Part shown: positions 2,351 through 63,708 of the stretch, piece by piece | How the letters are laid out: each line of letters starts with the position of its first letter | How positions within the stretch are numbered: the first letter of the stretch is position 1 | Origin: an uncultured Bacteroidales bacterium | Lineage (GTDB): Bacteria > Bacteroidota > Bacteroidia > Bacteroidales > P3 | Assembly: GCA_900316055.1 (NCBI GenBank) | Contig: ONBK01000001.1 | Span: forward strand, 248,001-312,000 | Reading direction: 5' to 3' | DNA: 64,000 nt | Made by a program: the position numbers and the translations under genes | Notes under the pieces: model-generated | What the model saw: only the letters and a program-made list of their open reading frames with translations | What the model was told of the DNA's origin: nothing | Database searches by the model: none

Positions 2351-3310
2351 TTATTCGTACACCAGTGCTAAGATGTCGTCGAGGATGGGATTGGGCTCGT
2401 GTTGCGAAGGTGTGGCTGTGCTGGCGCCGGTGAGGATGGTGCGGGCCTCGTCGAGGGCGGCGAGGTCGAGAGCGTCGGAGGCGATTTGGACGTCAGTGAT
2501 GATGTTGCGCTCCTGGTCGACGGTGAGCGACAGCTCTACCCCACCCCAGTCGAACTGGGCGGTGCGCTGGGCGGTAAAGGTGCGCCAACGGCCGTAGCGC
2601 CACTCGTCGGAAGCAAACTCCTCGTAGAGGGCGCGGACCTCGGGACGCTTGATGATTTCAGAGAACTCGGAATACTCCGATTTTTCTGAATACTCCGACT
2701 CAAAAGCACTGCGTAAATGGGGAATGATGCTGTCGGAAGTAATCTCGGCGTTGAGCTCGGAAAGGTTCACCACACGGCTGCGCACCGAGGCAACGCCGTG
2801 CTTCTGCAACTTGGCGGGCTTAGGCTTGAGGTAGCGCTGAAGGTCCTCCATGTTGCCTTTGATGAGGAGGGTGCCGTGATGCAGGTCCTGATATTTTCCT
2901 TTAGAAAAGGCATTACCCGAGAATTTGCGCCCCTCGGTGAGGATATCATTACGTCCCGATAACTCGGCCACGATGCCGAAGTCGGCCACGGCGCGCTGGA
3001 TGACACGGAACTGGCGCGTCTGGTCGTATAGCGCCTTGGGTACGACAAAGGAGAAGTTGATGTTGCCATCGTCGTGATAGACGGCACCGCCGCCGGTCCT
3101 GCGACGCATCAAGTAGCCGCCGTCGGCCTCAAGGGCCTCCACATTACACTCACTGAAAGGATTCTGGTTCTGACCAATGACCACCGTGCGGCGGTTCTTC
3201 CAAAGATAGAGCGTCACCACCTCGGTCTCGGGCAGCGACAAAAGATAATTCTCGACCGCGATGTTCCAATAAGGATTGGTCTGGTCGGAAACAATGAACT
3301 TTAACTTCAT
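2351..3310 (-). CDS. lplA: Lipoate--protein ligase A
   Basis: Attaches lipoate (via lipoyl-AMP) to lipoyl domains of 2-oxoacid dehydrogenases and GcvH. The 319-residue protein shows RRRTGGGAVYHDDGN at residues 69-83 and the lysine-containing GRKFSGNAFSKGKY region near 127-140, both hallmarks of the LplA catalytic domain, followed by a C-terminal accessory domain. Residues ~205-220 (ESEYSEKSEYSEFSEI) are a repetitive serine-glutamate-tyrosine insertion encoded by a short tandem repeat and not expected in the family. The gene lies 2 bp after porQ on the same strand. Confidence 0.92.
   Translation of the reverse strand: MKLKFIVSDQTNPYWNIAVENYLLSLPETEVVTLYLWKNRRTVVIGQNQNPFSECNVEALEADGGYLMRRRTGGGAVYHDDGNINFSFVVPKALYDQTRQFRVIQRAVADFGIVAELSGRNDILTEGRKFSGNAFSKGKYQDLHHGTLLIKGNMEDLQRYLKPKPAKLQKHGVASVRSRVVNLSELNAEITSDSIIPHLRSAFESEYSEKSEYSEFSEIIKRPEVRALYEEFASDEWRYGRWRTFTAQRTAQFDWGGVELSLTVDQERNIITDVQIASDALDLAALDEARTILTGASTATPSQHEPNPILDDILALVYE
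2657..2702. repeat. In-frame short repeat inside lplA
   Basis: Imperfect copies of a GAATACTCCGA-type unit, including its inverted form, encode EYSEKSEYSEFSE in the linker before the C-terminal domain. A related unit (AGAATACTC / AGAATATTC) occurs inside truB. Confidence 0.75.
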
Positions 3311-3312
3311 TT

Positions 3313-4395
3313 TTAAAATCTATAGCTAAGGGTAAAGAAATCCGGTGCCTGACCGAGATGGTAGTTGCGATGAGCATAGGAAAATTCGAACTTCTTGGTT
3401 CGCAGGCCGAAGCCGAAAGAGAAGCCGCTGAAGTTGATGGCGTCGATGGCACTCATCTCTGCCGTCTGTCGGTAACTGTAGCCCACACGGGCGAAAAAGG
3501 CTTTTCCGAGATTCAGTTCCACGCCGAACTGTGTATGGCGCATCAAGTTATCAAAGAACCCCTCAAACCATCCCTCCTTCTTCACCTCGCCAGTGAAGGG
3601 GTCCACCGTCGTTGTGGGGTTGTTGGGATCTTCATAGCGCAAATCCCAGCGTTGCAACTCCGTGGCGGCAAAGAAGAATCGGAAGGGGGCATTGGCCAGT
3701 TTATACGACAGCTCTGCTGATAACTCGAAAGGAAGGCTCTCGGACCTTCCATCGAAGGTCGACACTTGTGCCCCGATGTTGCGAGCCATCACGGTGGCCG
3801 CCAGCCGGCGGTTGTCGCTGACATAGCTGCCCGCCACATCGAAAGCCATAGCAAAAGCGGTGTAGTTGTCGTAGTGCGACAGCACGGGTTTGAAATTGAC
3901 ACCCACGCTAAAATTCGAATCGAGCCAAGTGCCCCACCCTATGGTGAGAGCATAGTCGGCAGCCGAGACCTTGCCTATCGGCATTTCCTCTTCGTCATAG
4001 CCGTCGAAAGTACCATAGTTGTTGAAACGGAATGCGAACATCAGAGTCCCCAGACGCTCGAAATGGTGTGCATAGGATAGCGACCCCATCGAGGCTCCGT
4101 CGAATACGGAGACAAAACTCAACGACCCAATACCACACATCTCGCGACGCAATAGCGACGGATTGTCGATGGCTATTGTTGGGTCATTGTCAAATATCGA
4201 CAGGTAGTCGAAACCCAGTGCCGATGTCCTCGCCTGACTGCTGAGGTCCAGCACCGTCAGAGTGTTCATACCGGCAATTTGCGAAAAAGAGGAGTATGGA
4301 AGTGCAAGGAGTATAAGGAGTGCAAGACAATACCAATACTTGCAGCATTTGTCCTGCACTCCCTGCACTCCTCGCACTCCTTGCACTCCCTTCAT
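3313..4395 (-). CDS. porQ: Type IX secretion system protein PorQ
   Basis: Outer-membrane beta-barrel protein of the T9SS family, 360 residues from the ATG at 4395. The mature part begins QIAGMNTLTVLDLSSQARTSALG, with the typical SIFDNDPTIAIDNPSLL segment, repeated amphipathic strands, and a terminal LSYRF barrel signature. This start is preferred over an upstream one that would overlap kamA. The N-terminus is unusual: GVQGVRGVQGVQD followed by the hydrophobic core LALLILLALPYSSFS are both written by an inverted 9-bp repeat. It sits between kamA (5-bp gap) and lplA. Confidence 0.88.
   Translation of the reverse strand: MKGVQGVRGVQGVQDKCCKYWYCLALLILLALPYSSFSQIAGMNTLTVLDLSSQARTSALGFDYLSIFDNDPTIAIDNPSLLRREMCGIGSLSFVSVFDGASMGSLSYAHHFERLGTLMFAFRFNNYGTFDGYDEEEMPIGKVSAADYALTIGWGTWLDSNFSVGVNFKPVLSHYDNYTAFAMAFDVAGSYVSDNRRLAATVMARNIGAQVSTFDGRSESLPFELSAELSYKLANAPFRFFFAATELQRWDLRYEDPNNPTTTVDPFTGEVKKEGWFEGFFDNLMRHTQFGVELNLGKAFFARVGYSYRQTAEMSAIDAINFSGFSFGFGLRTKKFEFSYAHRNYHLGQAPDFFTLSYRF
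4291..4394. repeat. Inverted 9-bp repeat forming the porQ signal peptide
   Basis: The left arm (4291-4326) has units like GTGCAAGGA and the right arm (4354-4390) has the inverse CACTCCTTG, with a ~27-bp spacer. In the porQ frame one arm encodes the tandem Gly-Val-Gln run and the other the Leu-rich hydrophobic core. Confidence 0.85.
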
Positions 4396-4400
4396 TTTTT

Positions 4401-6532: not shown

Positions 6533-6538
6533 GCCATA

Positions 6539-17070: not shown

Positions 17071-17102
17071 GATGGGTTATGGGTTATAGGTTATGGGTTA
17101 TA
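17071..17102. repeat. GGTTATG heptamer array
   Basis: Four copies of GGTTATG/GGTTATA in tandem between the membrane-protein gene and ispG; the last copy supplies the ispG stop codon region. Confidence 0.8.
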
Positions 17103-19427: not shown

Positions 19428-20843
19428 TTAAATTATCTCGTCGGCCAGCTGTGCGAAGTCGATGCCGTCGAAGTTGCCGCTGGACATCATAAGCAGGTTG
19501 ACACCTTGATTGCTTGATTGTTTGATTGTTTGATTGTTTGAATGCTGACGCGTCAGCCACTCATGCATTAACGCAATCAAGCAATCAAGCAATCTCTTGC
19601 TGTCGGTGAATACCTCCACATTGCCGCCGAAAGCCGCTTTCACCTCGTCGGGGTGCAGGTCGGGGAGTTTCTTGAGCTGCAGGGCGTGCTTGCTGTAGTA
19701 TACGTAGCGCACGTCGGCCTCGTCCATCGCATTCTTGTACTGCTGCAGGAACTCCTGCGTCAGCGAGCTGAAAGTGTGCAACTCCATGCAAGCCACCAGC
19801 TTGCGGTCGGGGTACTGCTCGCGCATGGCGTGGATGGTGGCACGGAGTTTCGACGGAGCATGGGCGAAGTCCTTATAGACGGCACAGGTGTCGTTCTTCT
19901 TCACCAGCTCCAGACGCTTGCTGGCGCCCTCAAAGGTGCTGATGGCTTCGTCGAACTGTTCATCCGTCACCCCCACCTGGCGGCAAGCCAAGCGTGCCGC
20001 GGTAAGATTCAAAAGGTTATGGTGGCCAAATATCTTCAACGCAATGTTTCCAATATAGGTCACACCATTGTCTACCCGATGCTCGGGGCAGACATACGGC
20101 AGCTTCTGTATATCCGTGCGCTGGTTCTCCACTGCCACGCGGTGCACTTCTTTGTCCTCGTCACAATACACCAGCGTACCGTTGGGTTCAATAAGGTCGA
20201 TAAACTTGCTGAACTGCTCGCGGTAGATGTCGAACGTCGGGAAGACATTGATATGGTCCCACTCGATGCCGGTAATGATGGCCACATTGGGCTTGTAGAG
20301 GTGGAACTTGGGACGGCGGTCGATGGGCGACGTGAGGTACTCGTCTCCCTCGATAACCATCACCTTGGCGGTATGCGAGAGCCGCACCATCACCTCGAAG
20401 CCCTTCAGCTGCGCACCCACCATATAGTCGGCCTCAATGCCGCACTTGGCAAGCACATGCAGTATCATGGCGGTAGTCGTCGTCTTGCCGTGCGAGCCGC
20501 CCACCACGATACGCATTTTATCTTTGCTCTGCTCGTAGAGGTATTCGGGATAACTGTAAATCTTCAGCCCCAACTCCTGCGCCTTTAGCAGCTCTGGATT
20601 GTCGATGCGGGCGTGCATACCCAGCACCACGGCGTCGAGGTCGGGCGTGATGCGTTCGGGGTGCCAGCCGAACGACTCCGGCAGCAAGCCATACTTCTCC
20701 AGCCGGCTCTTCGCGGGGTCGAATATCTCGTCGTCACTTCCCGTGACGTTGATTCCTTTCTGACAGAGGGCGATGGCGAGGTTGTGCATGGCGGAACCGC
20801 CGATGGCTATAAAATGAACTTTCATATTTCTGTTATTGTTCAT
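19428..20843 (-). CDS. mpl: UDP-N-acetylmuramate:tripeptide ligase, Mpl-type Mur ligase
   Basis: Recycling Mur ligase that joins the released L-Ala-gamma-D-Glu-meso-DAP peptide to UDP-MurNAc. The 471-residue protein has the Rossmann start IGGSAMHNLAIALCQKG, the ATP loop GGSHGKTTTTAM and VIEGDEYLT typical of Mpl rather than MurC. Residues ~421-449 are an in-frame insertion encoded by a palindromic repeat, just before the conserved LLMMSSGNFDGID end. The start ATG shares a base with the upstream stop (TAATG); an alternative Met lies 6 codons downstream. Confidence 0.88.
   Translation of the reverse strand: MNNNRNMKVHFIAIGGSAMHNLAIALCQKGINVTGSDDEIFDPAKSRLEKYGLLPESFGWHPERITPDLDAVVLGMHARIDNPELLKAQELGLKIYSYPEYLYEQSKDKMRIVVGGSHGKTTTTAMILHVLAKCGIEADYMVGAQLKGFEVMVRLSHTAKVMVIEGDEYLTSPIDRRPKFHLYKPNVAIITGIEWDHINVFPTFDIYREQFSKFIDLIEPNGTLVYCDEDKEVHRVAVENQRTDIQKLPYVCPEHRVDNGVTYIGNIALKIFGHHNLLNLTAARLACRQVGVTDEQFDEAISTFEGASKRLELVKKNDTCAVYKDFAHAPSKLRATIHAMREQYPDRKLVACMELHTFSSLTQEFLQQYKNAMDEADVRYVYYSKHALQLKKLPDLHPDEVKAAFGGNVEVFTDSKRLLDCLIALMHEWLTRQHSNNQTIKQSSNQGVNLLMMSSGNFDGIDFAQLADEII
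19506..19594. repeat. TTTGATTG / CAATCAAG inverted element with central palindrome, inside mpl
   Basis: About four copies of TTTGATTG-type units, the 14-bp perfect palindrome GCTGACGCGTCAGC (19544-19557), a short spacer and three CAATCAAG units. The element is read in frame in mpl. Related elements are at 46829, 60537 and 62840. Confidence 0.9.
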
Positions 20844-22227: not shown

Positions 22228-23379
22228 TTATTTCGGGTGGTAGTAGTAGTACTTGGTAACCTGTTTTTCCAAGAAATGGCGGTCCAATTGGTCGCTAGCT
22301 TCACTGATGGGCAGGCAGCGTCCATCTTTGTAGAGAACCTTTATCTCTTGGTCGTTGAAGTCGTATGAGCGGTTGGCCAACCTTCCAGTACCCTCGAAGT
22401 ACGACGGTTTCGGTTCGGGGAAGGGCTCATTACTGAACCGTATAGCCGGCAGGCGGCGGTTGACCATATTGCGGCACAACGTGCTTAGTATCTCGTCGTC
22501 CGAGTGCTGCCAGTGCTTGACAGCGACCATGATGTCGTCGTCATCAATCTCAGCGAATTCATCAAGGAAGTCGGGCAATGACGGGTCGAAGTGGAACACC
22601 GTCGGGTCGAGCTCACGGGCGCGGCGCAGAATATTCAACAGCAACTGGTCAGCGGCGATGACGGTCTTGTGCATATAGACCTGCCAGTACATAAGACGGC
22701 GGCTGATGATGAACTTCTCCACGCTGTAGATGCCCTTCTCGTCAATCACCAGCTCATCATCGTGCACATTGAGCATCGAGATGATGCGGTCGGTACCCAC
22801 GATACCCTCGCTCACACCGGTGAAGAAGCTGTCGCGTCCCAGATAGTCGAGTCGGTCCATATCGAGCTGGCTGCTCACCAGCTGATGCAGGAAATGTTTG
22901 TGGTATTCGTTCTTGAAGATGGCAATACAAGTCTCAAGTGCCTTGCTTGCGTCAGCCATACTTTCCACTTCCCATTTTCCACTTTCCACTTCCTCTCTCA
23001 TCCGCTGCATCATCAGCAGCGTGATTTCCTCGTGGGGCACGTCGACGAGCACCCGCTCGCTGGTGTGCGAGAAAGGTCCATGGCCGATATCGTGCAGCAG
23101 AATGGCCAGCTTGGCTCCGCGACATTCCTCGTCGCTAATCTCCACCCCCTTCTGCTTCAGCACCTCCAGCGCCCGTCCCATCAGGTTGAGGGCGCCCAGC
23201 ATGTGGCTGAAGCGAGTGTGCATCGCGCCGGGATAAACGAGATAGGTCAATCCCAACTGCTTGATGCGACGCTGACGCTGGAAATAGGGATGCTCGATGA
23301 CCTGAAGAATCACCGGGTCATCAATCGAGAGAAACCCGTCGTACACCGGGTCGTTGATTATCTTACGCTTAGTTGTCAT
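22228..23379 (-). CDS. HD-domain phosphohydrolase (COG1078-type)
   Basis: A 383-residue protein from the ATG at 23379 (MTTKRKIINDP); an in-frame ATG 30 bp upstream is possible but less likely. HD-domain metal ligands are visible in HTRFSHMLGALNL and LLHDIGHGPFSH, the pattern of dNTP triphosphohydrolase-like proteins. An in-frame insertion (EEVESGKWEVESM, about residues 130-142) comes from a TTTCCAC heptamer array. The substrate is unknown. Confidence 0.85.
   Translation of the reverse strand: MTTKRKIINDPVYDGFLSIDDPVILQVIEHPYFQRQRRIKQLGLTYLVYPGAMHTRFSHMLGALNLMGRALEVLKQKGVEISDEECRGAKLAILLHDIGHGPFSHTSERVLVDVPHEEITLLMMQRMREEVESGKWEVESMADASKALETCIAIFKNEYHKHFLHQLVSSQLDMDRLDYLGRDSFFTGVSEGIVGTDRIISMLNVHDDELVIDEKGIYSVEKFIISRRLMYWQVYMHKTVIAADQLLLNILRRARELDPTVFHFDPSLPDFLDEFAEIDDDDIMVAVKHWQHSDDEILSTLCRNMVNRRLPAIRFSNEPFPEPKPSYFEGTGRLANRSYDFNDQEIKVLYKDGRCLPISEASDQLDRHFLEKQVTKYYYYHPK
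22961..22993. repeat. TTTCCAC heptamer array inside the HD gene
   Basis: Four imperfect copies of CTTTCCA/CATTTTCCA units, read on the minus strand as VESGKWEVES. Confidence 0.85.
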
Positions 23380-23468
23380 AGATTTCTTTGTAGCAAAACC
23401 TCCAAACATGCGAAATCCTTTCGAATCCGCATGTTTGGAGTGTGGTTGTGTGTCGTTGGTTCCGGAGG

Positions 23469-25517: not shown

Positions 25518-25549
25518 TTATTTCTAATTTCTGAATTCTGATTTCTAAG
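25518..25549. repeat. ATTTCTAATTTCTGAATTCTG-type spacer repeat
   Basis: Roughly 7-bp repeats (ATTTCTA/ATTTCTG/AATTCTG) directly upstream of ftcD. Confidence 0.65.
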
Positions 25550-29052: not shown

Positions 29053-29085
29053 AAGGTACAATAATGTTGGTAGAATATTGAAAGA

Positions 29086-32166: not shown

Positions 32167-32215
32167 TTGTTAAAAAAATATTTCAATTTTCTCTTTTCAC
32201 TTTTCATTTTATTCG

Positions 32216-32258: not shown

Positions 32259-33401
32259 ATGAAATTTATCGTCAACAGCCAACAGCTACTCAAGCAGTTG
32301 CAGTCCCTCAGCGGAGTTCTATCCTCCAGCAACACCATGCCCATCATCAACTGCTTCCATTTCCACCTCGAGGAAAACGATTTGACCATTAAGACCACCG
32401 ACCTCTCCACCACCCTTCTGGCCCATGTCGCCGTAGAGACGGGTGCCATGGAGAATCCCGAAGAGGTGGCTGTTCCTTCGAAGATGCTCCTTGATATCCT
32501 CAAAACCTTCGAGGACGTTCCTCTGACCTTCGACGTAAACCAGAGCAACTACAACATCGAGATTGCCTCCGGCAAAGGTCAGTACCATCTGGCCGGCATG
32601 GATGCCGCCACCTATCCCACCATGCCTGTGGCCGAGAGTACCAACAAGGTGGTGATGAGCGGCAGCGCCCTCGTCAACGCCATCAACAAGACCGTCTTCG
32701 CCACTTCGAATGACGAGATGCACCAGCAAATGAGCGGCATCTACTGCGAGATGACCCCCGACGGCGTCACCTTCGTAGCCACCGACGCCCACAAACTCGT
32801 GCGCTACCGCCGCAAAGATGTCTCCTCGGACGAGAGCACCAATTTCATCCTTCCCAAGAAACCCATCATCATCGTCAAGAACATCCTCGCCGCCCGCAAG
32901 GAAGAGGACGAGGTGACCATCGAATACAACAACACCAACCTCTTCATCACCTTCGACAACTTCTATATCGTCTGCCGCTTGGTCGACGGCCGCTATCCCA
33001 ACTACGAAGCCGCCATCCCCAAGGACAACCCCAACAAGCTCATCCTCGACCGCCTCTCGTTCCTCAACACGCTGAAGCGCGTCAGCATCTTCGCCTCCGA
33101 AGCCACCCGTCAGGTACGTCTCTCCATCGGCAAAGACCAGCTGGAGATTTCGGCCGAAGACCTTGAGCTCTCCAACAACGCCCATGAGACGCTCCCCTGC
33201 CAGTACGAAGGTGACCCCATGGACATTGGATTCAACGCCAAGTTCCTCACCGAGATGATTTCCTACCTCGACAGCGAACAGGTGCTCGTCGAGCTCTCGC
33301 ATCCCTCGCGCGCAGGTATCATCTTCCCCTATGGCGACGATGAGTCCGAGAAGAAGGACGACATCCTCATGCTCGTCATGCCTGTGATGCTGGCCAATTA
33401 A
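32259..33401 (+). CDS. dnaN: DNA polymerase III subunit beta (sliding clamp)
   Basis: Replication processivity clamp, 380 residues, normal length. The start MKFIVNSQQLLKQLQSLSGVL and the three repeated clamp domains are evident (IVSGSALVNAINKTVFATSNDE-like second domain; PMDIGFNAKFLTEMISYL in the third), ending in the family-typical MLVMPVMLAN. It leads a run of ftsX, DUF3098, uppP and truB; dnaA is not adjacent. Confidence 0.96.
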   Translation: MKFIVNSQQLLKQLQSLSGVLSSSNTMPIINCFHFHLEENDLTIKTTDLSTTLLAHVAVETGAMENPEEVAVPSKMLLDILKTFEDVPLTFDVNQSNYNIEIASGKGQYHLAGMDAATYPTMPVAESTNKVVMSGSALVNAINKTVFATSNDEMHQQMSGIYCEMTPDGVTFVATDAHKLVRYRRKDVSSDESTNFILPKKPIIIVKNILAARKEEDEVTIEYNNTNLFITFDNFYIVCRLVDGRYPNYEAAIPKDNPNKLILDRLSFLNTLKRVSIFASEATRQVRLSIGKDQLEISAEDLELSNNAHETLPCQYEGDPMDIGFNAKFLTEMISYLDSEQVLVELSHPSRAGIIFPYGDDESEKKDDILMLVMPVMLAN

Positions 33402-33403
33402 TG

Positions 33404-33434
33404 GTTAAAGTTTAAAGTTTAACGTTTAAAGTTT
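33404..33434. repeat. GTTTAAA heptamer array between dnaN and ftsX
   Basis: Four copies of GTTAAA/GTTTAAA units. The array contains stops in every frame on both strands and ends exactly at the ftsX start codon. Confidence 0.85.
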
Positions 33435-38258: not shown

Positions 38259-39953
38259 TTACTTGATTTTTGCCCAACTGTCTTTTAACGTACAGGTCCG
38301 GTTAAAAACGAGATGCTCCGGTGTCGAGTCGCGGTCGGTGCAGAAATAACCCATGCGCTCAAACTGGTAACGCACAATTCCATCATTCCACTTTCCACTT
38401 TCCACTTTCCACTCAGCGAGTGCCTGCTCACATTTAGCGGTGACAACACGAAGACTGTTTGGGTTGAGGTTCTCGAGGAAGGTGTGGCCTTCCTCGACAT
38501 CATCGGGAGCCTCGACGGCGAAGAGGCGGTCGAAGAGGCGCACCTCAGCGTCGATGGCATGCTTGGCGCTGACCCAGTGAATAGTACCCTTCACCTTGCG
38601 CCCGTCGGGGGCATCGCCGCCACGTGTGGCGGGGTCATAGGTGCAGTGGATGCAAGTGATATTACCTTCGGCATCTTTCTCTACACTCTGTGCGGTGACA
38701 AAGTAGGCATAGCGCAGACGCACCTCCTGTCCAATAGCCATGCGGAAATATTTCTTGGGAGCCACCTCCATAAAGTCTTCACGCTCGATATAGAGCTCGC
38801 GACTGAAAGGCACCTGACGTGTACCATCAGCCTCGTTCTCGGGATTGTTCACGGCCGTCAGCATCTCAGTCTGTCCTTCTGGATAGTTATCGATGATTAC
38901 TTTCACAGGATCGAGGACGGCCATGCGACGCTGTGCCACCTTGTTGAGATGCTCGCGGAGCGAGAATTCAAGCAGGCCGTAGTCGATGATATTGTCGCGC
39001 TTAGCCACACCGATGCGGTCGCAAAAAGCCTTGATGCTCTCGGGCGTGTAGCCACGACGGCGGAAGCCACAGATGGTCGGCATACGGGGATCGTCCCAGC
39101 CACTGACATAGTTTTCCTTCACCAACTGAAGCAACTTGCGCTTGCTCATCACCGTATAGTTGATGTTCAGGCGGGCGAACTCGTACTGGTGACTCGGCCA
39201 AATGCCCAGCTGCTCAATGAACCAGTCGTAAAGTGGACGATGGATATCGAACTCCAGCGTGCAGATACTATGAGTGATATGCTCGATGGAATCGCTCTGA
39301 CCGTGGGCATAGTCGTACATCGGGTAGATACACCACTTGTCGCCCGTGCGGTGGTGATGGGCATGGAGGATGCGGTACATGATGGGGTCACGGAACATCA
39401 TGTTGGGGTGTGCCATATCTATCTTGGCGCGCAGCACCTTACTGCCATCGGGGAACTCACCGGCACGCATGCGGCGGAACAAATCGAGGTTCTCCTCGAC
39501 GCTACGGTCGCGATAGGGACTGTTCTTGCCTGGGGTGGTCACGGTACCGCGGCCCTCTCGAATCTCGTCGAGGGTCTGGTCGTCGACATAGGCAAGCCCT
39601 TTCTGAATCAGTACCTCGGCCCACTCGTAAAGCTGTTCAAAATAGTCAGATGCATAATGCTTCTCCGACCAATCGAAGCCCAGCCAGTGGATATCCTCTT
39701 GAATAGAGTCTACATATTCTGTATCTTCCTTCACAGGATTGGTGTCGTCAAAACGCAGGTTGGTCTTGCCACCATACTTCTTTGCCAGTCCGAAATTAAT
39801 GCAGATCGACTTGGCATGGCCGATGTGCAGGTAGCCGTTGGGTTCCGGCGGGAAACGGGTCTGGATAGCGCTATAGGTGCCATCCTTCAATCCCTGTTCA
39901 ATAATCTCTTCAAGAAAATTCAGTTGCTTCTCTGCGGCGTTATTCTCTTCCAT
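38259..39953 (-). CDS. glnS: Glutamine--tRNA ligase
   Basis: Class I synthetase, 564 residues. The HIGH motif appears as [15 protein letters not shown] and the KMSKS equivalent as VMSKRKL; the C-terminal anticodon-binding beta-barrels follow. Residues ~515-522 (WKVESGKW) are an in-frame insertion from a TTTCCAC heptamer array, in the last quarter of the protein before [14 protein letters not shown] -7 box precedes the gene. Confidence 0.95.
38386..38413. repeat. TTTCCAC heptamer array inside glnS
   Basis: Four tandem copies of TTCCACT, read on the minus strand as KVESGKW. Confidence 0.92.
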
Positions 39954-43132: not shown

Positions 43133-44263
43133 CTGGGCGGCAGGCTCGATGAGGTCGTCGGGGAAGTCGTAGTCAGGGTGGTGCAGTTCGGCGTGATTCT
43201 CGCCGCTGCCGATGCCGAACATGGCGCCCTTGAACTCAAGGAGATATTCGGCAAAGTCCTCGCTCCAACGGTTGGGAGCTTCCTGATACTGAATGTTTAG
43301 CGGCAATTCTTTTGCCGCTTTTTCTATGGCTTTCACACTGTCGGGGTGGTTCTCCGTGGCGCGGAAGGGTTCCACTAAGGAGCGACTGACTTTCAAACCA
43401 TAACGGGCAGACACCTCATCTACTACTTGGTTGGCTTCTGAGAGCATTTTTTCCATCTCGTCGTTGGTGAAGGCTCTGAGGGTGAACATCACCTCGCCGT
43501 GCCCCGCCGAGGTGCCGAAGGCCGGCTGCCCGACGCGGACACATATCAAAGTGCATTGTCGAAACCCGGCCTCACCCCCAACCCCTCTCCGCTCGAAGAG
43601 GGGAGTAGATACTCCCGAATGTAAACACATTCCACACCCCTCTCCACTTGGAGAGGGATCGGGGGTGAGGCCGCCGTTAAACCGTTGTATTATCTCTGCA
43701 ATAGCCATCCCTGGGTTGATGCCCATCTCGGGTGTCGAGGCGTGCGTCTCGCGGCCGTCGAGGCGGTAGACAACGCCCGTCGAGGCGGCGGCAAATGTCC
43801 TAGGACAGAGGACTACGGTACCTAACGGATAGCCCGGGAGGTTGTGCAAGGCATAGAAAGACTGTATGTTATACTGCTGGAGAATGCCTGTGTCGAGCAC
43901 AGCACGCGAGCCGGTACCCGTCTCCTCGGCAGGCTGCCAGAGGAGAAGAATGTTGACACGTTGATACGTTGATACGTGCTCGTCGATTAATTCGGCGAGA
44001 CGTAGTAATATGGTCGTGTGTCCGTCGTGACCGCAGCGGTGGCCGATAGGCAGGGCATCGTTGTCGGCACGGAAAGCAACGGTAGGAGCCTGCGGATCCT
44101 TGCCCCAGACGGCGATGACGCCATAGCCGCCCACATGGGTGTACACCTTGTCGGGATGCAATCCCTGTAGATGATTCACTATTGTATCGTGTGCAAACTG
44201 CTCGTTGCCTGCGGTCTGCGGGTGTTCGTGGAGAGTCCTCCTTATTTCTTTATAATCAATCAT
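43103..44263 (-). CDS. M20 family amidohydrolase
   Basis: Metal-dependent aminoacylase/amidohydrolase of the HipO/carboxypeptidase type, 386 residues. Metal ligands are visible in GHRCGHDGH (Cys77, His79), the EE pair in QPAEETGTGS and His174 in ETHAS, with ENHAELHHPDYDF near the end. Residues ~198-235 (GGLTPDPSPSGEGCGM ... RRGVGGEAGF) are an in-frame insertion encoded by a ~105-bp inverted-repeat element, between a helix of the dimerisation domain and the next strand. Confidence 0.88.
   Translation of the reverse strand: MIDYKEIRRTLHEHPQTAGNEQFAHDTIVNHLQGLHPDKVYTHVGGYGVIAVWGKDPQAPTVAFRADNDALPIGHRCGHDGHTTILLRLAELIDEHVSTYQRVNILLLWQPAEETGTGSRAVLDTGILQQYNIQSFYALHNLPGYPLGTVVLCPRTFAAASTGVVYRLDGRETHASTPEMGINPGMAIAEIIQRFNGGLTPDPSPSGEGCGMCLHSGVSTPLFERRGVGGEAGFRQCTLICVRVGQPAFGTSAGHGEVMFTLRAFTNDEMEKMLSEANQVVDEVSARYGLKVSRSLVEPFRATENHPDSVKAIEKAAKELPLNIQYQEAPNRWSEDFAEYLLEFKGAMFGIGSGENHAELHHPDYDFPDDLIEPAAQLFFRLTMEC
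43568..43672. repeat. 105-bp element with 12-bp terminal inverted repeats, inside the M20 gene
   Basis: Ends are GGCCTCACCCCC and GGGGGTGAGGCC (perfect inverses). Inside are two hairpins of the form CCCCTCTCC...GGAGAGGGG. The element is open on both strands in the frame used. No transposase or target duplication is evident. Confidence 0.9.
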
Positions 44264-44328: not shown

Positions 44329-45594
44329 CTTTAAAATCTGTTCGCGGAAGAAGTCGCCACGGTGTTCGAAGTTTTTGAAGGCGTCGTAGCTGGCGGCCGC
44401 CGGCGAGAGCAACACTACCCCACCCTGCGGCGTATGCTCGGCGCACCATGGGACAATCTTCTTGTAATCGTCTTCGACAATATAAGTGGAAAGCGGAAAG
44501 TGGAAAGTGGAAAGCATTCTTCTTCCTGCAGCGCCTACGAAAACAAGGTTCTTTATTGGGCTCTCTTTCAGGAAGTCGACCAGCGGAGTGTAGTCGATAC
44601 CTCGGTCAAAGCCACCGAGAATCAGCGTGTCCACGCGTCCCAGCGCGCGAACCGCAGCGATAGCGGCAGCAGGAATAGTGCTGATACTGTCGTCATACCA
44701 AGTGATGTCCTTATAGCATCCCACCTTCTCCATCCTGTGCCGGAGGCCTTGGAAAGAGGCAAAAGTCTCTTTAGTAGGTAGGGGGTAGTGGATAGTGGAT
44801 AGCGCCAACATCGCCACACGACAGGCCACCAAAGCATTACTTCTGTTATGATCTCCTTCCAACGGGCATGCGTTCAACAACATACGTTCCTCCTCCGTTG
44901 CATCGGTCAATCTATAGGGATGCAACATACCTGGCATAGCTTGCGAGCGGACAAGGTCATCAAGTTCGATAGCATCAGCACACCAGAAAAAATGATCGTC
45001 CGCTCGTTGTTTCAGCCCTATCTGCATCTTGGCCATCTTGTAACCCATATAGTTCTCGTAGTGGTCGAGATGTTCCTGGAAGAGATTGAGCAGCACAGCG
45101 ATATGCGGTCCTCGGTGGATATTCTCCAACTGGTGACAGCTCAACTCCGCCACCACAATGCTATCTTCCTTCAATCCATCAAGTATATCGAAGAGCGGTA
45201 TGCCGATATTGCCAGCCAAAATACTCCCAGGCAGCAGGTGATGTATCAAACTGGCGGTGGTGGACTTACCTTTGGTGCCAGTCACACCAATGGTCATGTC
45301 GCCATAAACCTGCAAAAACAAGTCTGTCAAACTTGTTAATTGGAAATTGAAAGTTGAAAATTGAAAATTAGGTATTCCCGGAGACTTGATGACCATATCG
45401 AACGGCCAGTCCTCATGCCACTCATCACTTTCGTCTCTCCACTTTCCACCTTCCACTTGCACGGCAATGGTGTAAGGTGTCTCGGGTACCAGCCGCTGTA
45501 TCAATCGCTCGGCGCTCTTGCCCTCGCGCCCGTAGCCGGCTATCAATATCTTGCGCCCTTTTAAGAGGGCTCTCAGTTGTTCTTCCCGGTACAT
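44305..45594 (-). CDS. murD: MurD-type UDP-N-acetylmuramoyl-L-alanine--glutamate ligase
   Basis: Cytoplasmic Mur ligase, 429 residues. The ATP loop GTKGKST is at 106-112, followed by AGNIGIPLFD, AELSCHQLEN and the C-terminal domain (ILGGFDRGIDYTPL, LLSPAAASYDAFKNFEHRGDFF). Its neighbour looks like MurL, so this could be the MurD2 type that adds L-glutamate. Four in-frame repeat insertions are visible: residues ~47-58 (VEGGKW), 76-88 (NFQFSTFNFQL), 265-275 (LSTIHYPLP) and 361-371 ([10 protein letters not shown]); a fifth repeat forms the C-terminus. Confidence 0.88.
   Translation of the reverse strand: MYREEQLRALLKGRKILIAGYGREGKSAERLIQRLVPETPYTIAVQVEGGKWRDESDEWHEDWPFDMVIKSPGIPNFQFSTFNFQLTSLTDLFLQVYGDMTIGVTGTKGKSTTASLIHHLLPGSILAGNIGIPLFDILDGLKEDSIVVAELSCHQLENIHRGPHIAVLLNLFQEHLDHYENYMGYKMAKMQIGLKQRADDHFFWCADAIELDDLVRSQAMPGMLHPYRLTDATEEERMLLNACPLEGDHNRSNALVACRVAMLALSTIHYPLPTKETFASFQGLRHRMEKVGCYKDITWYDDSISTIPAAAIAAVRALGRVDTLILGGFDRGIDYTPLVDFLKESPIKNLVFVGAAGRRMLSTFHFPLSTYIVEDDYKKIVPWCAEHTPQGGVVLLSPAAASYDAFKNFEHRGDFFREQILKLNQNEKN
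44484..44514. repeat. GTGGAAA heptamer array inside murD
   Basis: Four copies; read on the minus strand as [10 protein letters not shown], the opposite orientation to the array in glnS. Confidence 0.9.
44774..44803. repeat. GGATAGT heptamer array inside murD
   Basis: Units AGTAGGT, AGGGGGT, AGTGGAT, AGTGGAT; read on the minus strand as LSTIHYPLPT. Confidence 0.88.
45339..45370. repeat. TTGAAAG heptamer array inside murD
   Basis: Copies of ATTGGAA/ATTGAAA/GTTGAAA read on the minus strand as NFQFSTFNFQL. Confidence 0.88.
45437..45462. repeat. TTTCCAC heptamer array inside murD
   Basis: CTCCACTTTCCACCTTCCAC read on the minus strand as VEGGKW. Confidence 0.85.
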
Positions 45595-45596: not shown

Positions 45597-47072
45597 TTAA
45601 ATTGCTTGATTGACTGATTGCCTGATTGCCTGAGTCAGAATCTGTCGTTCTTCCTCCGTGAGATTCCCTATAGGAGCTATCGCTTCTATAGTATCTATAG
45701 CATCTATTGATTCTATCCTATAGCCCCTCAACAACGCAGGCCTCTCCTCCTGATACCACCTCTTCAGCGTCATACTCAATGCCAGCCGCACCTCGCTCAC
45801 CGTTCCCACACACTCGAAAGGCTTTGTCTCAGCCTCGCCGATAAGCTGTTTGAATTCAAGTTCCATCGTCATGTCGTCAAGCATCGACTTCCCGAAAATC
45901 TGATTCAATCGTGCAGGCTCAATAAACGGTGAAAGGATGATGTAGGCGAAGAGGCACTTCGCACAATGGCCGCACCAAATGTCCTCCTTGCTGCCTGCAT
46001 TGCACGAACGGAACACATCGTGATAATCCGTAAAACGGCTGAACAGCATGGCTATCTGCAATTCACTCAACGGCCGCAGAAAACTGAAATAATTATAAGT
46101 GGATAGTGGGTAGTGGACAGTGGGTAGCATTTGTGCCTGTGTGCTATCCACTACACACTCCCCACTCCCCACTACATATCTCCTAAAGTCGTCCTCGAAC
46201 TCAAGGCTTTTCGAATACTGGTGGTTCACATACGATCCCTTGACGGTACTCTCATTAGCCGAGTTTTCGTTGCTCAACGCCACGTTTGGAATGCCACTCA
46301 GCGCCGACGCCAACCGAGTGTAGAATGCCAACATCGCGGAGAAGGGCGTATGCCCATTCAGATACCCTTTGGCATTTAATTCCAACAGCGTCGGGTCAAT
46401 CTTACGCCGTATCACCAGCACCTCCTCCATCGGGAATCCTGCCACCCGGGCACACTCCTTAGTGGCCCCACGGGGATTCATAATTAACGGACGTATTTTC
46501 TTACCGGCCCTCCGCAGCAACTCCAGCGTAACAACAGAATCCTTCCCTCCCCCTATCGGCACCAAATAAGTTGAAAGTTGAGAGTTGAAAGTTGAAAGAT
46601 GGGCTCCCGTGGACTGCGTAGCTTCACTTTTCACTTTCATAAACGCCTCTGGCGTTTCTGAAATGCCGTTGGTATAGAAAAATTCACCGAGGCCGTTCCA
46701 ATAGAGTTTTTTCCAGAAAGCCACCTGCTCGTCGGTAAGTACTCCACACTCCACCTTTACCGTCGGGGGACAAGCACATTTCCAGTAGCTTATCAACTCT
46801 ATCATTCCGATATCGAAGACCATCCTGTCGATTGCCTGATTGCCTGATTGTTTGATTGCCTGAGTATTTGACGCGTCAGCACTCAAGCATTCAAGCATTG
46901 ACGAATTCAAGCATTTACGCTCGATAAGTGCTTCTGGATGAAACTCCACATCACCCATCTTGAAGTCGAACCACACCTTCAATCCCGCCTCCGTCACCTC
47001 ATAGTGATAATCCTCGTAAACGAACTCGGGATATTGCTCACGCAGCTCCCTGTACAATATTTCATTCTTCAT
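45597..47072 (-). CDS. murL: MurL-type UDP-MurNAc-L-Ala-L-Glu epimerase
   Basis: A 491-residue protein with a PP-loop-like motif PIGGGKDSVVTLELL (residues 172-186), RPLIMNPRGATKECA, and a Cys-rich site WCGHCAKCLFAY near residue 376. This matches the MurL family, which uses ATP (to AMP and PPi) to convert the L-Glu of UDP-MurNAc-L-Ala-L-Glu to D-Glu. Pairing with murD 2 bp downstream supports this. Five repeat insertions are visible: residues ~53-82, 158-168 (immediately before the PP-loop), 299-326, 453-469 and 478-491. Confidence 0.75.
   Translation of the reverse strand: MKNEILYRELREQYPEFVYEDYHYEVTEAGLKVWFDFKMGDVEFHPEALIERKCLNSSMLECLSADASNTQAIKQSGNQAIDRMVFDIGMIELISYWKCACPPTVKVECGVLTDEQVAFWKKLYWNGLGEFFYTNGISETPEAFMKVKSEATQSTGAHLSTFNSQLSTYLVPIGGGKDSVVTLELLRRAGKKIRPLIMNPRGATKECARVAGFPMEEVLVIRRKIDPTLLELNAKGYLNGHTPFSAMLAFYTRLASALSGIPNVALSNENSANESTVKGSYVNHQYSKSLEFEDDFRRYVVGSGECVVDSTQAQMLPTVHYPLSTYNYFSFLRPLSELQIAMLFSRFTDYHDVFRSCNAGSKEDIWCGHCAKCLFAYIILSPFIEPARLNQIFGKSMLDDMTMELEFKQLIGEAETKPFECVGTVSEVRLALSMTLKRWYQEERPALLRGYRIESIDAIDTIEAIAPIGNLTEEERQILTQAIRQSVNQAI
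45598..45640. repeat. ATTGCCTG/ATTGACTG array at the murL C-terminus
   Basis: Units of 8 bp read on the minus strand as LTQAIRQSVNQAI, including the murL stop. Confidence 0.85.
45670..45724. repeat. CTATAG-rich array inside murL
   Basis: Repeated (T)CTATAG(C/T)ATCTAT units read on the minus strand as IESIDAIDTIEAIAPIG. Confidence 0.82.
46097..46178. repeat. Inverted GTGGATAGTGG / CCACTATCCAC element inside murL
   Basis: The left arm GTGGATAGTGGGTAGTGG and right arm with CTATCCACTACACACTCC flank a ~15-bp spacer; read as VVGSGECVVDSTQAQMLPT and VHYPLSTYN. Confidence 0.85.
46569..46600. repeat. TTGAAAG heptamer array inside murL
   Basis: Four copies read on the minus strand as HLSTFNSQLSTY, directly before the PIGGGKDS motif. 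Confidence 0.88.
46829..46920. repeat. ATTGCCTG / CAAGCATT inverted element with GACGCGTC core, inside murL
   Basis: Four ATTGCCTG-like units, the core TTGACGCGTCAGC, then CTCAAGCATTCAAGCATT units. Same family as the element in mpl; read as ECLSADASNTQAIKQSGNQAI. Confidence 0.9.
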
Positions 47073-47102
47073 TCTTAATTCTTCATTCTTAATTTTAAAT
47101 TA
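47061..47102. repeat. ATTCTTCATTCTTA array at the murL start
   Basis: Tandem ATTCTTC/ATTCTTA heptamers surround and precede the murL start codon. Confidence 0.75.
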
Positions 47103-48263: not shown

Positions 48264-48309
48264 GTTAGTGGTTATTGGTTATTGAAATATTGAAATATTG
48301 AAATTAAAG
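48264..48309. repeat. GTTATTG / AAATATTG spacer repeat
   Basis: Tandem units GGTTATTGGTTATTGAAATATTGAAATATTGAAATT between the TetR and TolC genes. Confidence 0.75.
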
Positions 48310-53700: not shown

Positions 53701-53966
53701 GCGGCCAGAGCCGTCTGCGTCCCGTCATGATGACCGCCTTCACCACCATCCTCGGCATGATTCCCATGGCCACCTCCACGGCCGAAGGCTCCGAAATATG
53801 GACCACCATGGGTATCGTCGTCATCGGCGGTCTGCTGGTCTCCACCCTCGTCACCCTCATCGTCGTCCCCGTCCTCTACGGTGCCTTCAACCGCCGCGGT
53901 GACCACGAGCGTCAGGAAAAGATTCGCAAGAAATTCGTATTCATGAACATTAACCTTGATGAGTAA
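50781..53966 (+). CDS. RND (AcrB-type) efflux permease
   Basis: Inner-membrane proton-driven pump, 1061 residues. Typical N-terminus (PITTGLIFVAVIIMGLFSLTRLPIDQMPEMDPPYVTV), twelve membrane helices, and intramembrane proton-relay Asp pair in SLTVAIGMVVDDAIVVLENI. The C-terminal half has GMLGIVLLIGIVVKNGIVLVDYINLLRERD. Likely a multidrug pump of the hydrophobe/amphiphile class. It is followed by a repeat element and a PII-like gene. Confidence 0.95.
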   Translation: MAIYKTAINKPITTGLIFVAVIIMGLFSLTRLPIDQMPEMDPPYVTVMTTYAGANASDIETNITKILENSLNSVDGLKNITSTSKDNISVVTLEFEWGENIDEALNDIRSYVDLIYDNLPDGVSRPMILKLNSSAMPVMIYGFTAKESYSGLDRILEDNVVNELNRIDGIGNITVSGAPERYVYIDLDPKQLDAYGISLETVGNAISANNLDLASGTVKMGKEQYQMRVKGEYVESSEIADIAVTTTATGKQVFVRDLATVRDTIKDLSLDEKINSLDGARLIITKQTGANTVEIAKQVRAKMEEIQKTLPPDIEATLIRDGSEEIVNAINGLAESIFYALLFVVLVVLLFLGNWRATIIIGLTIPISLVTSFIYLLLADSSLNIISLASLTVAIGMVVDDAIVVLENISKHIDRGESPREAAICATNEVWTSVIATTLVLVAVFVPLTMLPGMMGIFFKELGWIVTIVVCVSTTAAITLIPMLSSKMLKEKPFFLTKEARLDAEAKQKKKLFTFDKTIGRAFSAIEASYANFLRWCLRHKIVTLLSALAFFVATLIFGASTFSHMDFMKEQDNGQISVTAELQRGTRIEETLKTARHMEDDIRRILGEDLLVISTSAGSNDDAGFAALFNSTTNNKISMTIRATKKFERERTIFQMQEELRKCFAEYPELVNYQVNKGGMMGGGSNNSLSIEVYGYDFDQTTNFTQELKKRIEQNVAGARDTKVSRDEDRAELKITFDKQKLALHGLNGSTVAMYVRNRVNGMAAGYLKEDGEEYNIVVRLREEYRSSISDIEQMSIPTPMGKIIKLEELAKVEEYWCPPTIERKNRQRYLTLSVMPFNTSLGELAMGVQKELDQMGIPQGVHVALAGSYEDQKDSTSDMGLLALLIMMLVYIVMASQFESFGKPAIIMFSIPFALSGVILTLMITGETLDMVGMLGIVLLIGIVVKNGIVLVDYINLLRERDVPLYEAIALSGQSRLRPVMMTAFTTILGMIPMATSTAEGSEIWTTMGIVVIGGLLVSTLVTLIVVPVLYGAFNRRGDHERQEKIRKKFVFMNINLDE

Positions 53967-53971
53967 TTAGC

Positions 53972-54020
53972 AATTAGGAATTAGGAATTATCGCCTCAGC
54001 CCAATTCCTAATTCCTAATT
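53972..54020. repeat. AATTAGG heptamer inverted element
   Basis: AATTAGGAATTAGGAATT (53972-53989) and its perfect inverse AATTCCTAATTCCTAATT (54003-54020) around a 13-bp spacer; extra partial copies flank both ends. Confidence 0.92.
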
Positions 54021-54037
54021 CAAAATTCCTAATTAAT

Positions 54038-56822: not shown

Positions 56823-57136
56823 AATTATCCTGTTGGATAAATTACAATACTCCATCCCGTTTAGTTTATAATTGCAAATATACTAATATTTTTTAATTAT
56901 ACCTCTCATGTATAAAACGCACTCACAACCATCTAAAAATCAGCATCCCCAGATACCAACACCGTCCTAAATCCGTCCCAACGACGTATCAGCAATGTAC
57001 CATCACCGACAACAGTCGGCGATGATACACCGTCGTGAGGAGGATAAACTGTTAAAGTTTAGTTAAAAATCCCTCGGTAACACGTTCGGGGCTTATATTA
57101 TATATGTTTCATTTTTCTGCCGGAGGCATGAAATAC

Positions 57137-57171
57137 ACCTTAAACCTTAAACCTTAAACTTTAAACTTTAC
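57137..57171. repeat. TTAAACC / TTTAAAC heptamer array
   Basis: Four tandem copies of ACCTTAA/ACTTTAA directly upstream of the DUF6266 start; related to the GTTTAAA array before ftsX. Confidence 0.85.
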
Positions 57172-60170: not shown

Positions 60171-60180
60171 AACGCAATAA

Positions 60181-60531: not shown

Positions 60532-60536
60532 GGTTC

Positions 60537-61144: not shown

Positions 61145-61230
61145 TGTCTCGAATCGTTATTAGGTACTACTTGATTGTTTTTTCTTGCAAAAAGTTTCGG
61201 AAAAATATTCTTTTTCCCGGAATTTTCCTT

Positions 61231-62378: not shown

Positions 62379-62395
62379 AGCTTTTGTTTGTTTTT

Positions 62396-62833: not shown

Positions 62834-62839
62834 TACTAT

Positions 62840-62925
62840 TATTGTTTGATTGTGTTATTGCTTGATTGTGTGAGAATTTGGCGCGACAGCACTCAAGCAT
62901 TCAAACAATCAAGCATTCAAACATT
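62840..62925. repeat. TTTGATTG / CAAGCATT inverted element between exbB and exbD
   Basis: ATTGTTTGATTGTGTTATTGCTTGATTG, core with GGCGCGACAGC, then CTCAAGCATTCAAACAATCAAGCATT. Same family as 19506, 46829 and 60537. Confidence 0.9.
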
Positions 62926-62927
62926 TT

Positions 62928-63605
62928 TTAGGCCGGTTCATGGAGGAGATCCATAAACTCGTTGGCGCGGACCTCGAGGTCGAAGACCACTTTGTTGATG
63001 CGGGAGACAAGGAGGTTATAGAGGAAATAGCAGATGATACCGACGATGAGGCCGCCGACGGTGGTGACCATAGCGGTGGAGATGCCGCCGGAGAGGGTGG
63101 CGATGCTGATGTCGGTGCCTGCATTCTTCATATCCTGGAAAGCGGTAATCATACCGGTGACGGTGCCGAGGAAGCCGAGCATGGGTCCCAAAGAGGCCAC
63201 GGTGGCGACGAGGGAGACACGTTTCTCAAGGTTGGCGACTTCGAGTTTGCCCTCACTTTCGATGGCAGCCTGGATGTCGGGCAGCGGACGACCGAGGCGC
63301 GAGAAGCCCTTGCTGATCATGCGACCCAGGGGCGAAGCGGTCTGCTTGGCGAGGTTGCGGGCCTCGTCGAGGTTGCCGTTGTGGACATGCTGACGGATTT
63401 CGTCCATAAAGACGCTGTCGTCGTTGCCTTTGAGAGCGTTGCTGAGGGTAATGTAACGCTCGATGAAGATGTAGACGGCAAGGACCAACATCAGTCCGAG
63501 GATAATCATAATCCATCCGCCACTGACAGCCATCTCCCAAAGGGAAAGAGACTTGGGGGCTTCGGCAGTAGTGCTGTCAAGAAGAATAAAAAGAGAGTTC
63601 GTCAT
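62928..63605 (-). CDS. exbB: MotA/TolQ/ExbB proton channel protein
   Basis: A 225-residue protein with three membrane helices (SGGWIMIILGLMLVLAVYIFI; VATVASLGPMLGFLGTVTGMI; AMVTTVGGLIVGIICYFLYN), the ExbB/TolQ pattern. It energises TonB together with ExbD. It is upstream of exbD with a repeat element in the gap. Confidence 0.92.
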   Translation of the reverse strand: MTNSLFILLDSTTAEAPKSLSLWEMAVSGGWIMIILGLMLVLAVYIFIERYITLSNALKGNDDSVFMDEIRQHVHNGNLDEARNLAKQTASPLGRMISKGFSRLGRPLPDIQAAIESEGKLEVANLEKRVSLVATVASLGPMLGFLGTVTGMITAFQDMKNAGTDISIATLSGGISTAMVTTVGGLIVGIICYFLYNLLVSRINKVVFDLEVRANEFMDLLHEPA

Positions 63606-63666
63606 TGTTTGTTGTTTTTTGTGTTTGCTTGATTAAACGTGTTATTTTGTTTATTATTGCATAGAT

Positions 63667-63708
63667 TAACTAGTTTTTCTGGTTTAACTAGTTTTTCTAA
63701 GTTTTCTA
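63667..63708. repeat. AACTAGTTTTTCT direct repeats at the DUF5683 gene end
   Basis: Two copies of AACTAGTTTTTCT 18 bp apart, followed by CTAAGTTTTCTAAA, reaching the DUF5683 stop codon. Confidence 0.7.

What the first reader, a model, noticed from the sequence alone, without database searches (positions are those of the whole stretch)
2657..63708. Dispersed heptamer repeats whose placement follows their stop-codon content
More than 30 short tandem repeats, mostly with 7-bp units, are scattered through the window. A 7-bp unit gives the same cyclic heptapeptide in all three frames, so an array is either open or closed on a whole strand. TTTCCAC is open on both strands (VESGKWK and FPLSTFH) and is found inside genes in both orientations (glnS and HD versus murD). 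TTTCAAC, TATCCAC and TTTCACC are open on one strand only, and long copies inside genes are in that orientation. GTTTAAA and AATTAGG are closed on both strands and are found only between genes. This suggests ongoing insertion or expansion followed by selection against frame-breaking copies, giving proteins with recurring peptide inserts. I do not recall a description of it in this phylum.
Basis: partly seen in the sequence, partly recalled or inferred. Interest (0 to 1): 0.85.

Follow-up and report, generated by a model that had tools for sequence, protein, structure and literature searches.

The report
In-frame heptamer hairpins invading bacterial genes
In a group of gut and rumen bacteria, short stretches of DNA made of a repeated 7- or 8-letter word, some of them folded around a fixed core, have been copied into many genes without breaking them, and close relatives often carry a different word at the same spot.

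Summary
The window has 17 heptamer and 8 octamer arrays. In 834 kb (34%) of its genome, heptamer arrays number 179 against 0 in a Markov copy. Placement follows stop content: wholly inside genes are 2 of 62 arrays closed on both strands, 55 of 95 open on one, 19 of 22 open on both; coding DNA is 86.3%. Part of this is built in, because genes are open frames, and the stop argument is in print for TAACTGA repeats (MacGregor 2015). Relatives show more. At 19 of 28 array sites in orthologous genes, an array-free ortholog is at least 9 bp shorter. Twelve sites carry arrays in several species, yet 18 of 135 species pairs share the unit. Length has a second mode near 31 bp. A subset are arms of hairpins around GGCTGNCGC: 38 of 185 core matches directly follow an array, against 5 of 614 for control motifs. 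I read these as small non-autonomous palindromic elements that spread by copying and change arm units in place, filtered by stop codons. The copying enzyme is not identified, and most arrays show no core.

The parts
17072..17101 (.). heptamer array, AACCCAT class (ATGGGTT), at a gene end
19505..19594 (-). octamer hairpin inside ORF 19428-20843: CAATCAAG/CAATCAAA-type arms around core GCTGACGCGTCAGCC (19544-19558 on the + strand)
   Evidence: (z -3.52); same core with other octamer arms in G002 (found by the scan) and a close variant in G004 (read by eye), absent in five other orthologs
22949..22991 (-). TTTCCAC-class array (22960-22991) followed on the gene strand by core GGCTGACGC (22949-22957), inserted in the HD-domain protein gene 22228-23409
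   Evidence: no array at this site in the other orthologs read
25520..25546 (.). heptamer array, AAATCAG class, intergenic
29126..29153 (+). TTTCACC array near the start of gene 29086-30978 (P-domain and CHU_C protein), sense-open orientation
32181..32210 (.). heptamer array, AAAAGTG class, intergenic
33398..33434 (.). GTTTAAA-class array, closed on both strands, overlapping the end of gene 32259-33401
38386..38413 (-). TTTCCAC array in glnS (38259-39953); VESGKWK peptide, in a loop of the model
   Evidence: same unit in G004, G009, G022 and L025, other unit in G010, none in G002 and G023
43952..43977 (-). octamer array in the M20 peptidase gene 43103-44263; relatives carry other units or hairpins here
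44484..44514 (-). TTTCCAC array, MurD-like gene, site 3
   Evidence: arrays in 10 of 12 species, 6 different units
44777..44802 (-). TATCCAC array, MurD-like gene, site 2
   Evidence: arrays in 8 of 12 species, 6 different units
45338..45369 (-). TTTTCAA-class array, MurD-like gene, site 1
   Evidence: arrays in 5 of 12 species, 3 different units
45601..45633 (-). octamer array forming the end of ORF 45597-47072, G000 only of 12 species
46088..46182 (-). hairpin inside ORF 45597-47072: AGTGGGG/ACCCACT arms around TAGCAC...TGCTA
   Evidence: z -4.04; similar loops
46568..46598 (-). TTTCAAC array in ORF 45597-47072
   Evidence: arrays in 7 of 12 species, 7 different units
46830..46899 (-). octamer arrays (46830-46858, 46878-46899) around core TGACGCGTCAGC (46869-46880 on the + strand), insertion in G000 only of 12 species
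   Evidence: the DNA fold is not significant (z -0.78)
47061..47101 (.). heptamer array, TTCATTC class, at a gene start
48264..48304 (.). heptamer (48264-48284) and octamer (48280-48304) arrays, intergenic
53959..54028 (.). inverted pair of AATTAGG arrays, closed on both strands, overlapping the end of the efflux-pump gene 50781-53966
   Evidence: (z -4.75)
57134..57170 (.). AAACCTT/AAACTTT array, closed on both strands, intergenic
62836..62928 (.). octamer hairpin between two genes, core-like GCTGTCGCGC
   Evidence: (z -3.75)

Best explanation
The arrays are whole or single arms of small hairpin-prone insertion elements. The full form is a tandem heptamer or octamer array of about 30 bp, then a core GGCTGNCGC, a short loop, then the inverted array. 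Copies are written into new sites within and between genes. A copy with a stop in the host frame is lost by selection, so that mostly units open on the sense strand stay inside genes, as a tolerated peptide insert. At an occupied site the insert can remain while the unit of its arms is replaced as a block, and idle arms decay by point mutation into ordinary coding sequence. Shown: in-frame insertion at many sites, the core association, the characteristic length, different units at fixed sites, identical irregular arrays at unlinked sites, and placement by stop content. Inferred: that units are replaced in place, that copying is templated (a replication fork or nascent strand switching between elements at cores and arms, or an unknown transposase acting in trans), that no host benefit is needed, and that coreless single arrays are derived half-elements.
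For: In-frame insertions against orthologs: HD gene array plus core only in G000; 69-bp and 57-bp full hairpins with core in G002, missing from 4 of 4 and 1 of 1 orthologs compared; octamer inserts in ORF 45597-47072 only in G000 among 12 species; 19 of 28 sites have an array-free ortholog at least 9 bp shorter. Fixed sites, different units: 12 of 28 sites are multi-species, identical unit in 18 of 135 same-site pairs. Core: 38 of 185 GGCTG[ACG]CGC sites have an array directly upstream (G000 15 of 78, relatives 23 of 107), control motifs 5 of 614; 23 of 50 GCTGNCGC cores with an upstream array also have a downstream one. Inverted partners: 40 of 232 arrays against 8 of 232 with another array's flanks. 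Length: second mode at 30-32 bp in G000 (62 arrays in the bin) and in relatives (54), Markov 0. Copying: exact irregular matches of 33-36 bp at non-orthologous loci. Unit pool: 106 of 179 arrays fit NTYMAMY against 6.4% (genome) and 8.8% (intergenic) of random heptamers, a pattern chosen after seeing the units. Stop filter: 2 of 62, 55 of 95, 19 of 22. Insert in a loop of the GlnS model.
Against: Most arrays show neither core nor partner: 3' of the purine-rich strand a core match of 9 or more of 11 is found in 13 of 233 arrays in G000 (1.2 expected) and 12 of 109 in relatives (0.7 expected). The core was found in G000 data, so its test there is not independent, and orthologous copies in relatives are not independent of each other; the fourth variant GGCTGTCGC is weak (2 of 45). 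At 9 of 28 sites no array-free ortholog is 9 bp shorter, so those arrays may have replaced sequence rather than been inserted. No mobilising enzyme is tied to them: RVT_1 is not found in G001, G002, G004 and G008, Y1 transposase not in G008 and G009; the Y1 gene of G000 on C12 has no core beside it but does have one 25-bp AACTCTT array in its 2.7-kb locus. No target-site duplication was seen by eye, and none was formally sought. Matched change of both arms is mixed: clear in ORF 45597-47072, but at the octamer hairpin and in the M20 gene one cross-species arm pairing scores as high as the within-species ones. One-strand-open arrays are less genic (55 of 95, 58%) than a pure stop filter would give (about 76%, my estimate by hand). 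Genic arrays are not confined to the genus: L222 (G155) has two in a 1,329-nt open frame.
Confidence: 0.57

Rival explanations
1. Ordinary simple-sequence repeats: arrays arise locally by replication slippage in 7- and 8-bp steps from chance seeds, and selection removes frame-breaking ones.
For: Heptanucleotide excess is common in bacteria (stated in PMC4679880 and PMC4692102). Outside the genus, TTTCACC arrays look like this: one apparently orthologous array has 31, 36, 31 and 52 bp of the same unit in four genomes. At 9 of 28 sites no array-free ortholog is clearly shorter.
Against: Length has a second mode near 31 bp instead of steady decay; the same few units recur at unlinked loci; at fixed sites units differ between species; single 7-bp steps inside a gene shift the frame; cores and inverted partners are unexplained; octamer and heptamer arrays occupy one site in different species.
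Confidence: 0.21
2. Protein-level selection: the heptapeptides are useful and the DNA repeat follows from the repeated peptide.
For: Arrays persist at fixed sites in the MurD-like gene and glnS across species, and units at a site resemble each other more than chance (0 of 2000 shuffles).
Against: TTTCCAC is used in both orientations in genes (5 against 7), giving unrelated peptides; the same kind of array with stops on both strands abounds between genes (49 of 80 intergenic heptamer arrays); some species have an unrelated element or no insert at the site.
Confidence: 0.07
3. Independent insertions into a few tolerant loops explain the shared sites; units are not replaced in place.
For: Unrelated elements hit the same loops (GGGGAGG-type palindromes in the M20 gene of G001 and G007, another element in the HD gene of G022 and G023), and single-species sites are common (16 of 28).
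Against: MurD-like site 3 has arrays in 10 of 12 species at nearly the same codon and of similar length; at site 2 a core-like GCGYCAGCC stands directly before the array region in 9 of the 14 aligned rows with various units (read by eye), though it also encodes a conserved protein stretch.
Confidence: 0.15

Closest known systems
TAACTGA heptamer direct repeats of Beggiatoaceae, Cyanobacteria and some Bacteroidetes (MacGregor 2015, PMC4679880; abstract and sections 3, 8, 9, 10 and 15 read)
   Same: Dispersed short heptamer arrays, closed on one strand and open on the other; closed copies overlap gene ends, and stop content is named as probably a major factor controlling distribution.
   Different: One unit, mostly intergenic and upstream of starts; the sections read describe no shared core and no unit change at fixed sites; genic or overlapping cases are 25 proteins, mostly at the periphery.
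Heptanucleotide repeats GGGNATC of Xanthomonas and Nostoc (Rehm 2015, PMC4692102; abstract and passages read)
   Same: Genome-wide heptamers with a preference for about four units, some overlapping stop codons.
   Different: G-rich, under-represented in coding regions, preference linked to G-quadruplexes; here a similar length preference occurs in units that are mostly not G-rich.
Rickettsia palindromic elements (described in a review, PMC10969869, passages read; Ogata 2000 and 2002 not read)
   Same: Small palindromic repeats inserted in frame in many unrelated genes.
   Different: About 150-bp families with a conserved peptide; the passages read mention no tandem heptamers and no change of arm unit at fixed sites.
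Coding palindromes in Nematomorpha mitochondria (Mikhailov 2019, PMC6649704, abstract read)
   Same: Inverted repeats embedded in coding sequence.
   Different: Arms encode conserved protein regions; the abstract does not describe tandem arrays.

Membership tests
Heptanucleotide simple sequence repeats / VNTR | Tandem 7-bp units in excess of chance | tested here: met
   179 against 0
Heptanucleotide simple sequence repeats / VNTR | Alleles differ in copy number of the same unit | tested here: inconclusive
   Between species it fails: 18 of 135 same-site pairs share the unit, and length has a fixed mode; alleles within a species could not be compared
Rickettsia palindromic elements (works like) | Palindromic repeat inserted in frame in unrelated protein genes | tested here: met
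   holds for the hairpin subset only
Rickettsia palindromic elements (works like) | Sequence similarity to RPE families | not tested
   RPE sequences not fetched; no membership claimed
REP elements moved by RAYT (Y1) transposases | Y1 gene present in the genomes and flanked by the element (feature recalled) | tested here: not met
   The two Y1 loci of G000 show no core flanked by arrays; one 25-bp array lies in L171; no Y1 match in G008 and G009, which are 88% and 95% complete
MITEs | Terminal inverted repeats with target-site duplications | tested here: inconclusive
   Inverted arms in a subset; no duplication seen by eye, no formal test
TAACTGA-type repeats | Unit TAACTGA in direct repeats | tested here: not met
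   0 arrays of this unit class among those of the 834-kb sample

The most novel reading that the evidence does not exclude
A class of small mobile palindromes with a constant core (GGCTGNCGC, perhaps also TAGCAC...TGCTA) whose arms are interchangeable tandem-repeat cassettes of about 30 bp. Some activity writes or rewrites the arms as a block, so that a site keeps its insert but changes its 7- or 8-bp word between species, also inside genes expected to be essential, such as glnS and a MurD-like ligase gene. That would be a cassette-like rewriting of coding sequence with a fixed length and period.
Probability: 0.35. Interest if true: 0.85.

Novelty: new variant of a known kind. Interest (0 to 1): 0.65.

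Why it matters
It would join two literatures, heptamer repeats and protein-coding palindromes, and suggest that they can be one element. A preferred length, a fixed core and a changing unit make a testable demand on the mechanism that plain slippage does not meet. It also shows enzymes repeatedly gaining, changing and absorbing peptide inserts within one genus, a direct view of how indel loops arise in proteins, and gives a warning for annotation: recurring peptides such as VESGKWK or FPLSTFH are not homology.

Tried and rejected
Reverse transcriptase or Y1 transposase as the agent: no consistent presence. Rfam families in the window: none at the gathering threshold. Peptide-level adaptation: judged unlikely on orientation balance. 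Assembly artefact: unlikely, since arrays recur at the same codons in separate genomes. A second core TAGCAC...TGCTA: 3 of 3 matches scanned (plus strand only) lie at arrays, too few to rest on, and two of them come from G012 stretches chosen because they hold arrays. Matched change of both arms at orthologous hairpins: mixed. Genome-wide homogenisation of units: weak (63 of 2000 shuffles reach the observed value). No null model was computed for the shared irregular arrays; 45 of its 310 pairs were shown, and these include other repeats and strand duplicates. The 28 sites are not all independent: the two arms of one hairpin count as two sites in three cases. Not tested: whether any closed array splits a gene into fragments.
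Full report
WHAT AND WHERE. The window is G000:C26:248001-312000 of a 2.43-Mb genome in 32 contigs. By GlnS its nearest named relatives (six records at 82-90% identity) are Bacteroidales-type MAGs, several from rumen by their titles, including Candidatus Colimorpha pelethequi (L023) and 'bacterium P3' (L025); Candidatus Colimorpha belongs to Bacteroidales. That the window's genus is Colimorpha is likely, not proven.

OBSERVATION. TRF lists 54 rows in the window, 13 of period 7. A lag scan allowing mismatches gives 17 heptamer and 8 octamer arrays. In the sample of the genome (C26 whole, most of C23 and C31, part of C21; 833,648 bp, 34%) there are 179 heptamer and 54 octamer arrays against 0 and 0 in one fourth-order Markov copy; one G run is counted in both. 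My own gene caller gave 592 genes, 86% coding; its start sites are approximate.

PLACEMENT. Wholly inside called genes: 2 of 62 heptamer arrays closed on both strands, 55 of 95 open on one (43 sense-open, 12 sense-closed), and 19 of 22 open on both; coding fraction 86.3%. For units with three G or C: 0 of 9, 27 of 38 and 13 of 15. Intergenic one-strand-open arrays between codirectional genes are 12 to 12 in orientation. Closed arrays of full length cannot lie inside an open frame, so part of the pattern is definitional. What is not definitional is that both-open arrays fall in genes as often as random placement predicts, and that closed units are over-represented in the pool compared with random heptamers. 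Non-genic arrays cluster at gene ends: 47 of 103 within 12 bp of a 3' end (random 14.6%) and 30 of 103 within 12 bp of a 5' end (16.0%); 27 overlap or touch the 3' end.

INSERTION. In the HD-domain protein (window 22228-23409), 26 loci including G000 were aligned. Only G000 has an array at that site, followed by GGCTGACGC. One row (G002) did not reach the site there, but one search shows that it lacks the insert. G022 and G023 have an unrelated insert at the same place, and a few species have arrays elsewhere in the gene. Over 68 genes with at least one ortholog in the fetched DNA (198 pairs), 28 array sites were found, 16 in one species and 12 in several; two arms of one hairpin count twice in three cases. 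At 19 of 28 sites an array-free ortholog is at least 9 bp shorter; at 9 none is, so there the array may have replaced sequence of like length. Full hairpins with a core are inserted in frame in G002: 69 bp missing from G000, G004, G009 and G015, and 57 bp missing from G000, the only ortholog compared. The octamer hairpin at window 19505-19594 has nearly the same core in G000, G002 and G004 with different octamers and is missing from five other species.

DIFFERENT UNITS AT FIXED SITES. MurD-like gene, site 3: arrays in 10 of 12 species with 6 units; site 2: 8 of 12 with 6 units; a site in ORF 45597-47072: 7 of 12 with 7 units; GlnS: 5 of 7 with 2 units. Over all sites, 18 of 135 same-site species pairs have the identical heptamer unit. 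Mean best-rotation similarity is 4.66 of 7 at the same site, 3.96 for different sites of one species, and 3.75 for different sites of different species. Shuffling units within species never reaches the site value (0 of 2000); shuffling within sites reaches the genome value in 63 of 2000. In GlnS, L025 shares a 29-bp array exactly although flanks differ, and L027 has a degenerate sequence of equal length. In the HD gene, G002 has a regular TTTCACC array where G009 and G023 have a degenerate heptad, which suggests that arrays decay into ordinary sequence.

CORE AND HAIRPIN. An inverted partner within 130 bp is found for 40 of 232 arrays (8 of 232 against the flanks of a random other array). GGCTG[ACG]CGC is directly preceded by an array in 38 of 185 cases (G000 15 of 78; relatives 23 of 107), while nine control motifs give 5 of 614 in all and the variant GGCTGTCGC 2 of 45. 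The motif was found in G000, so the relatives are the fairer test, though orthologous copies there are not independent. Of 50 GCTGNCGC cores with an upstream array (775 cores examined), 23 also have one downstream. Four of five tested window elements fold as single-stranded DNA better than all 200 shuffles (z -3.5 to -4.8); the fifth does not (z -0.78). In four stretches of G012 of the same genus, chosen because they hold TTTCCAC arrays, hairpins with arms of about 25-31 bp lie in long open frames.

LENGTH AND COPYING. Array lengths fall roughly as chance predicts to about 21 bp, then rise to a second mode at 30-32 bp: 62 arrays in that bin in G000 and 54 in relatives, Markov 0. Exact matches including irregular positions join unlinked loci: 34 bp at C26:116746 and C31:75969, 33 bp at C26:134349 and 351263, 36 bp in G002 and G009 (no null model). 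Outside the genus, 11 loci of 7 genomes chosen for TTTCACC arrays were read: those arrays are 25-94 bp long, one apparently orthologous array keeps its unit while its length varies (31, 36, 31, 52 bp), no GGCTG core stands next to them, and one genome has two arrays in a 1,329-nt open frame. TTTCACC in three copies is found in 8 of 148 genomes of the phylum sample, the own genome included, which has 65 matches. Close same-genus MurD loci have 55 heptamer arrays in 50 kb and more distant ones 1 in 77 kb; HD loci show no such drop (8 in 54 kb, 10 in 66 kb).

MECHANISM. The evidence supports a dispersed element written as a block and filtered by stop codons. Ectopic template switching at cores and arms is my inference; it would explain constant cores, changing units and complementary arms. 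The test of matched arm change is mixed. No enzyme was identified.

PRIOR ART. MacGregor 2015 (PMC4679880) describes heptamer arrays with one open and one closed strand and says this probably controls placement. Rehm 2015 (PMC4692102) describes heptamers with a four-unit preference. Rickettsia palindromic elements are the nearest in-frame invaders (PMC10969869, passages). Searches for heptanucleotide repeats, cyanobacterial STRR, coding palindromes of Rickettsia, heptamer repeats with Bacteroidetes, Colimorpha and in-frame palindromic repeats listed no paper whose title or abstract start describes the combination; the library holds open-licence papers only.

Noticed in passing
Relatives G001 and G007, M20 peptidase gene (ortholog of window 43103-44263), and G007 MurD-like gene: Another palindromic element (CTCCCCTTGCCAAGGGGAGGTGCCCGAAGGGCGGAGGGG type) is inserted in frame at loops where other species carry heptamer or octamer arrays.
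   Followed up: partly
Relatives G022 and G023, HD-domain gene (ortholog of window 22228-23409): A third in-frame element (CGCGACCGAAGTGGAGCGAACGAGG) sits at the site of the G000 array.
   Followed up: no
G000:C12:83441-86654: Two reverse-transcriptase matches and a Y1 transposase match lie within 3.3 kb.
   Followed up: no
G000 C26:4701, C26:11484, C23:150564 and G002 (second fetched stretch): A 33-39 bp repeat AGTAGTTAAGTAGACAGTAGTTAAGTAGTTAAG recurs at unlinked loci and in a relative.
   Followed up: no
window 26881-30978: Two neighbouring proteins with P-domain and CHU_C type IX secretion signals; the second carries a TTTCACC array near its start.
   Followed up: no
L063 (Gemmatimonadota record), about 1811-1900: An inverted pair of AATTAGG/AATTACG arrays resembling window 53959-54028 occurs in a record of another phylum.
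   Followed up: no
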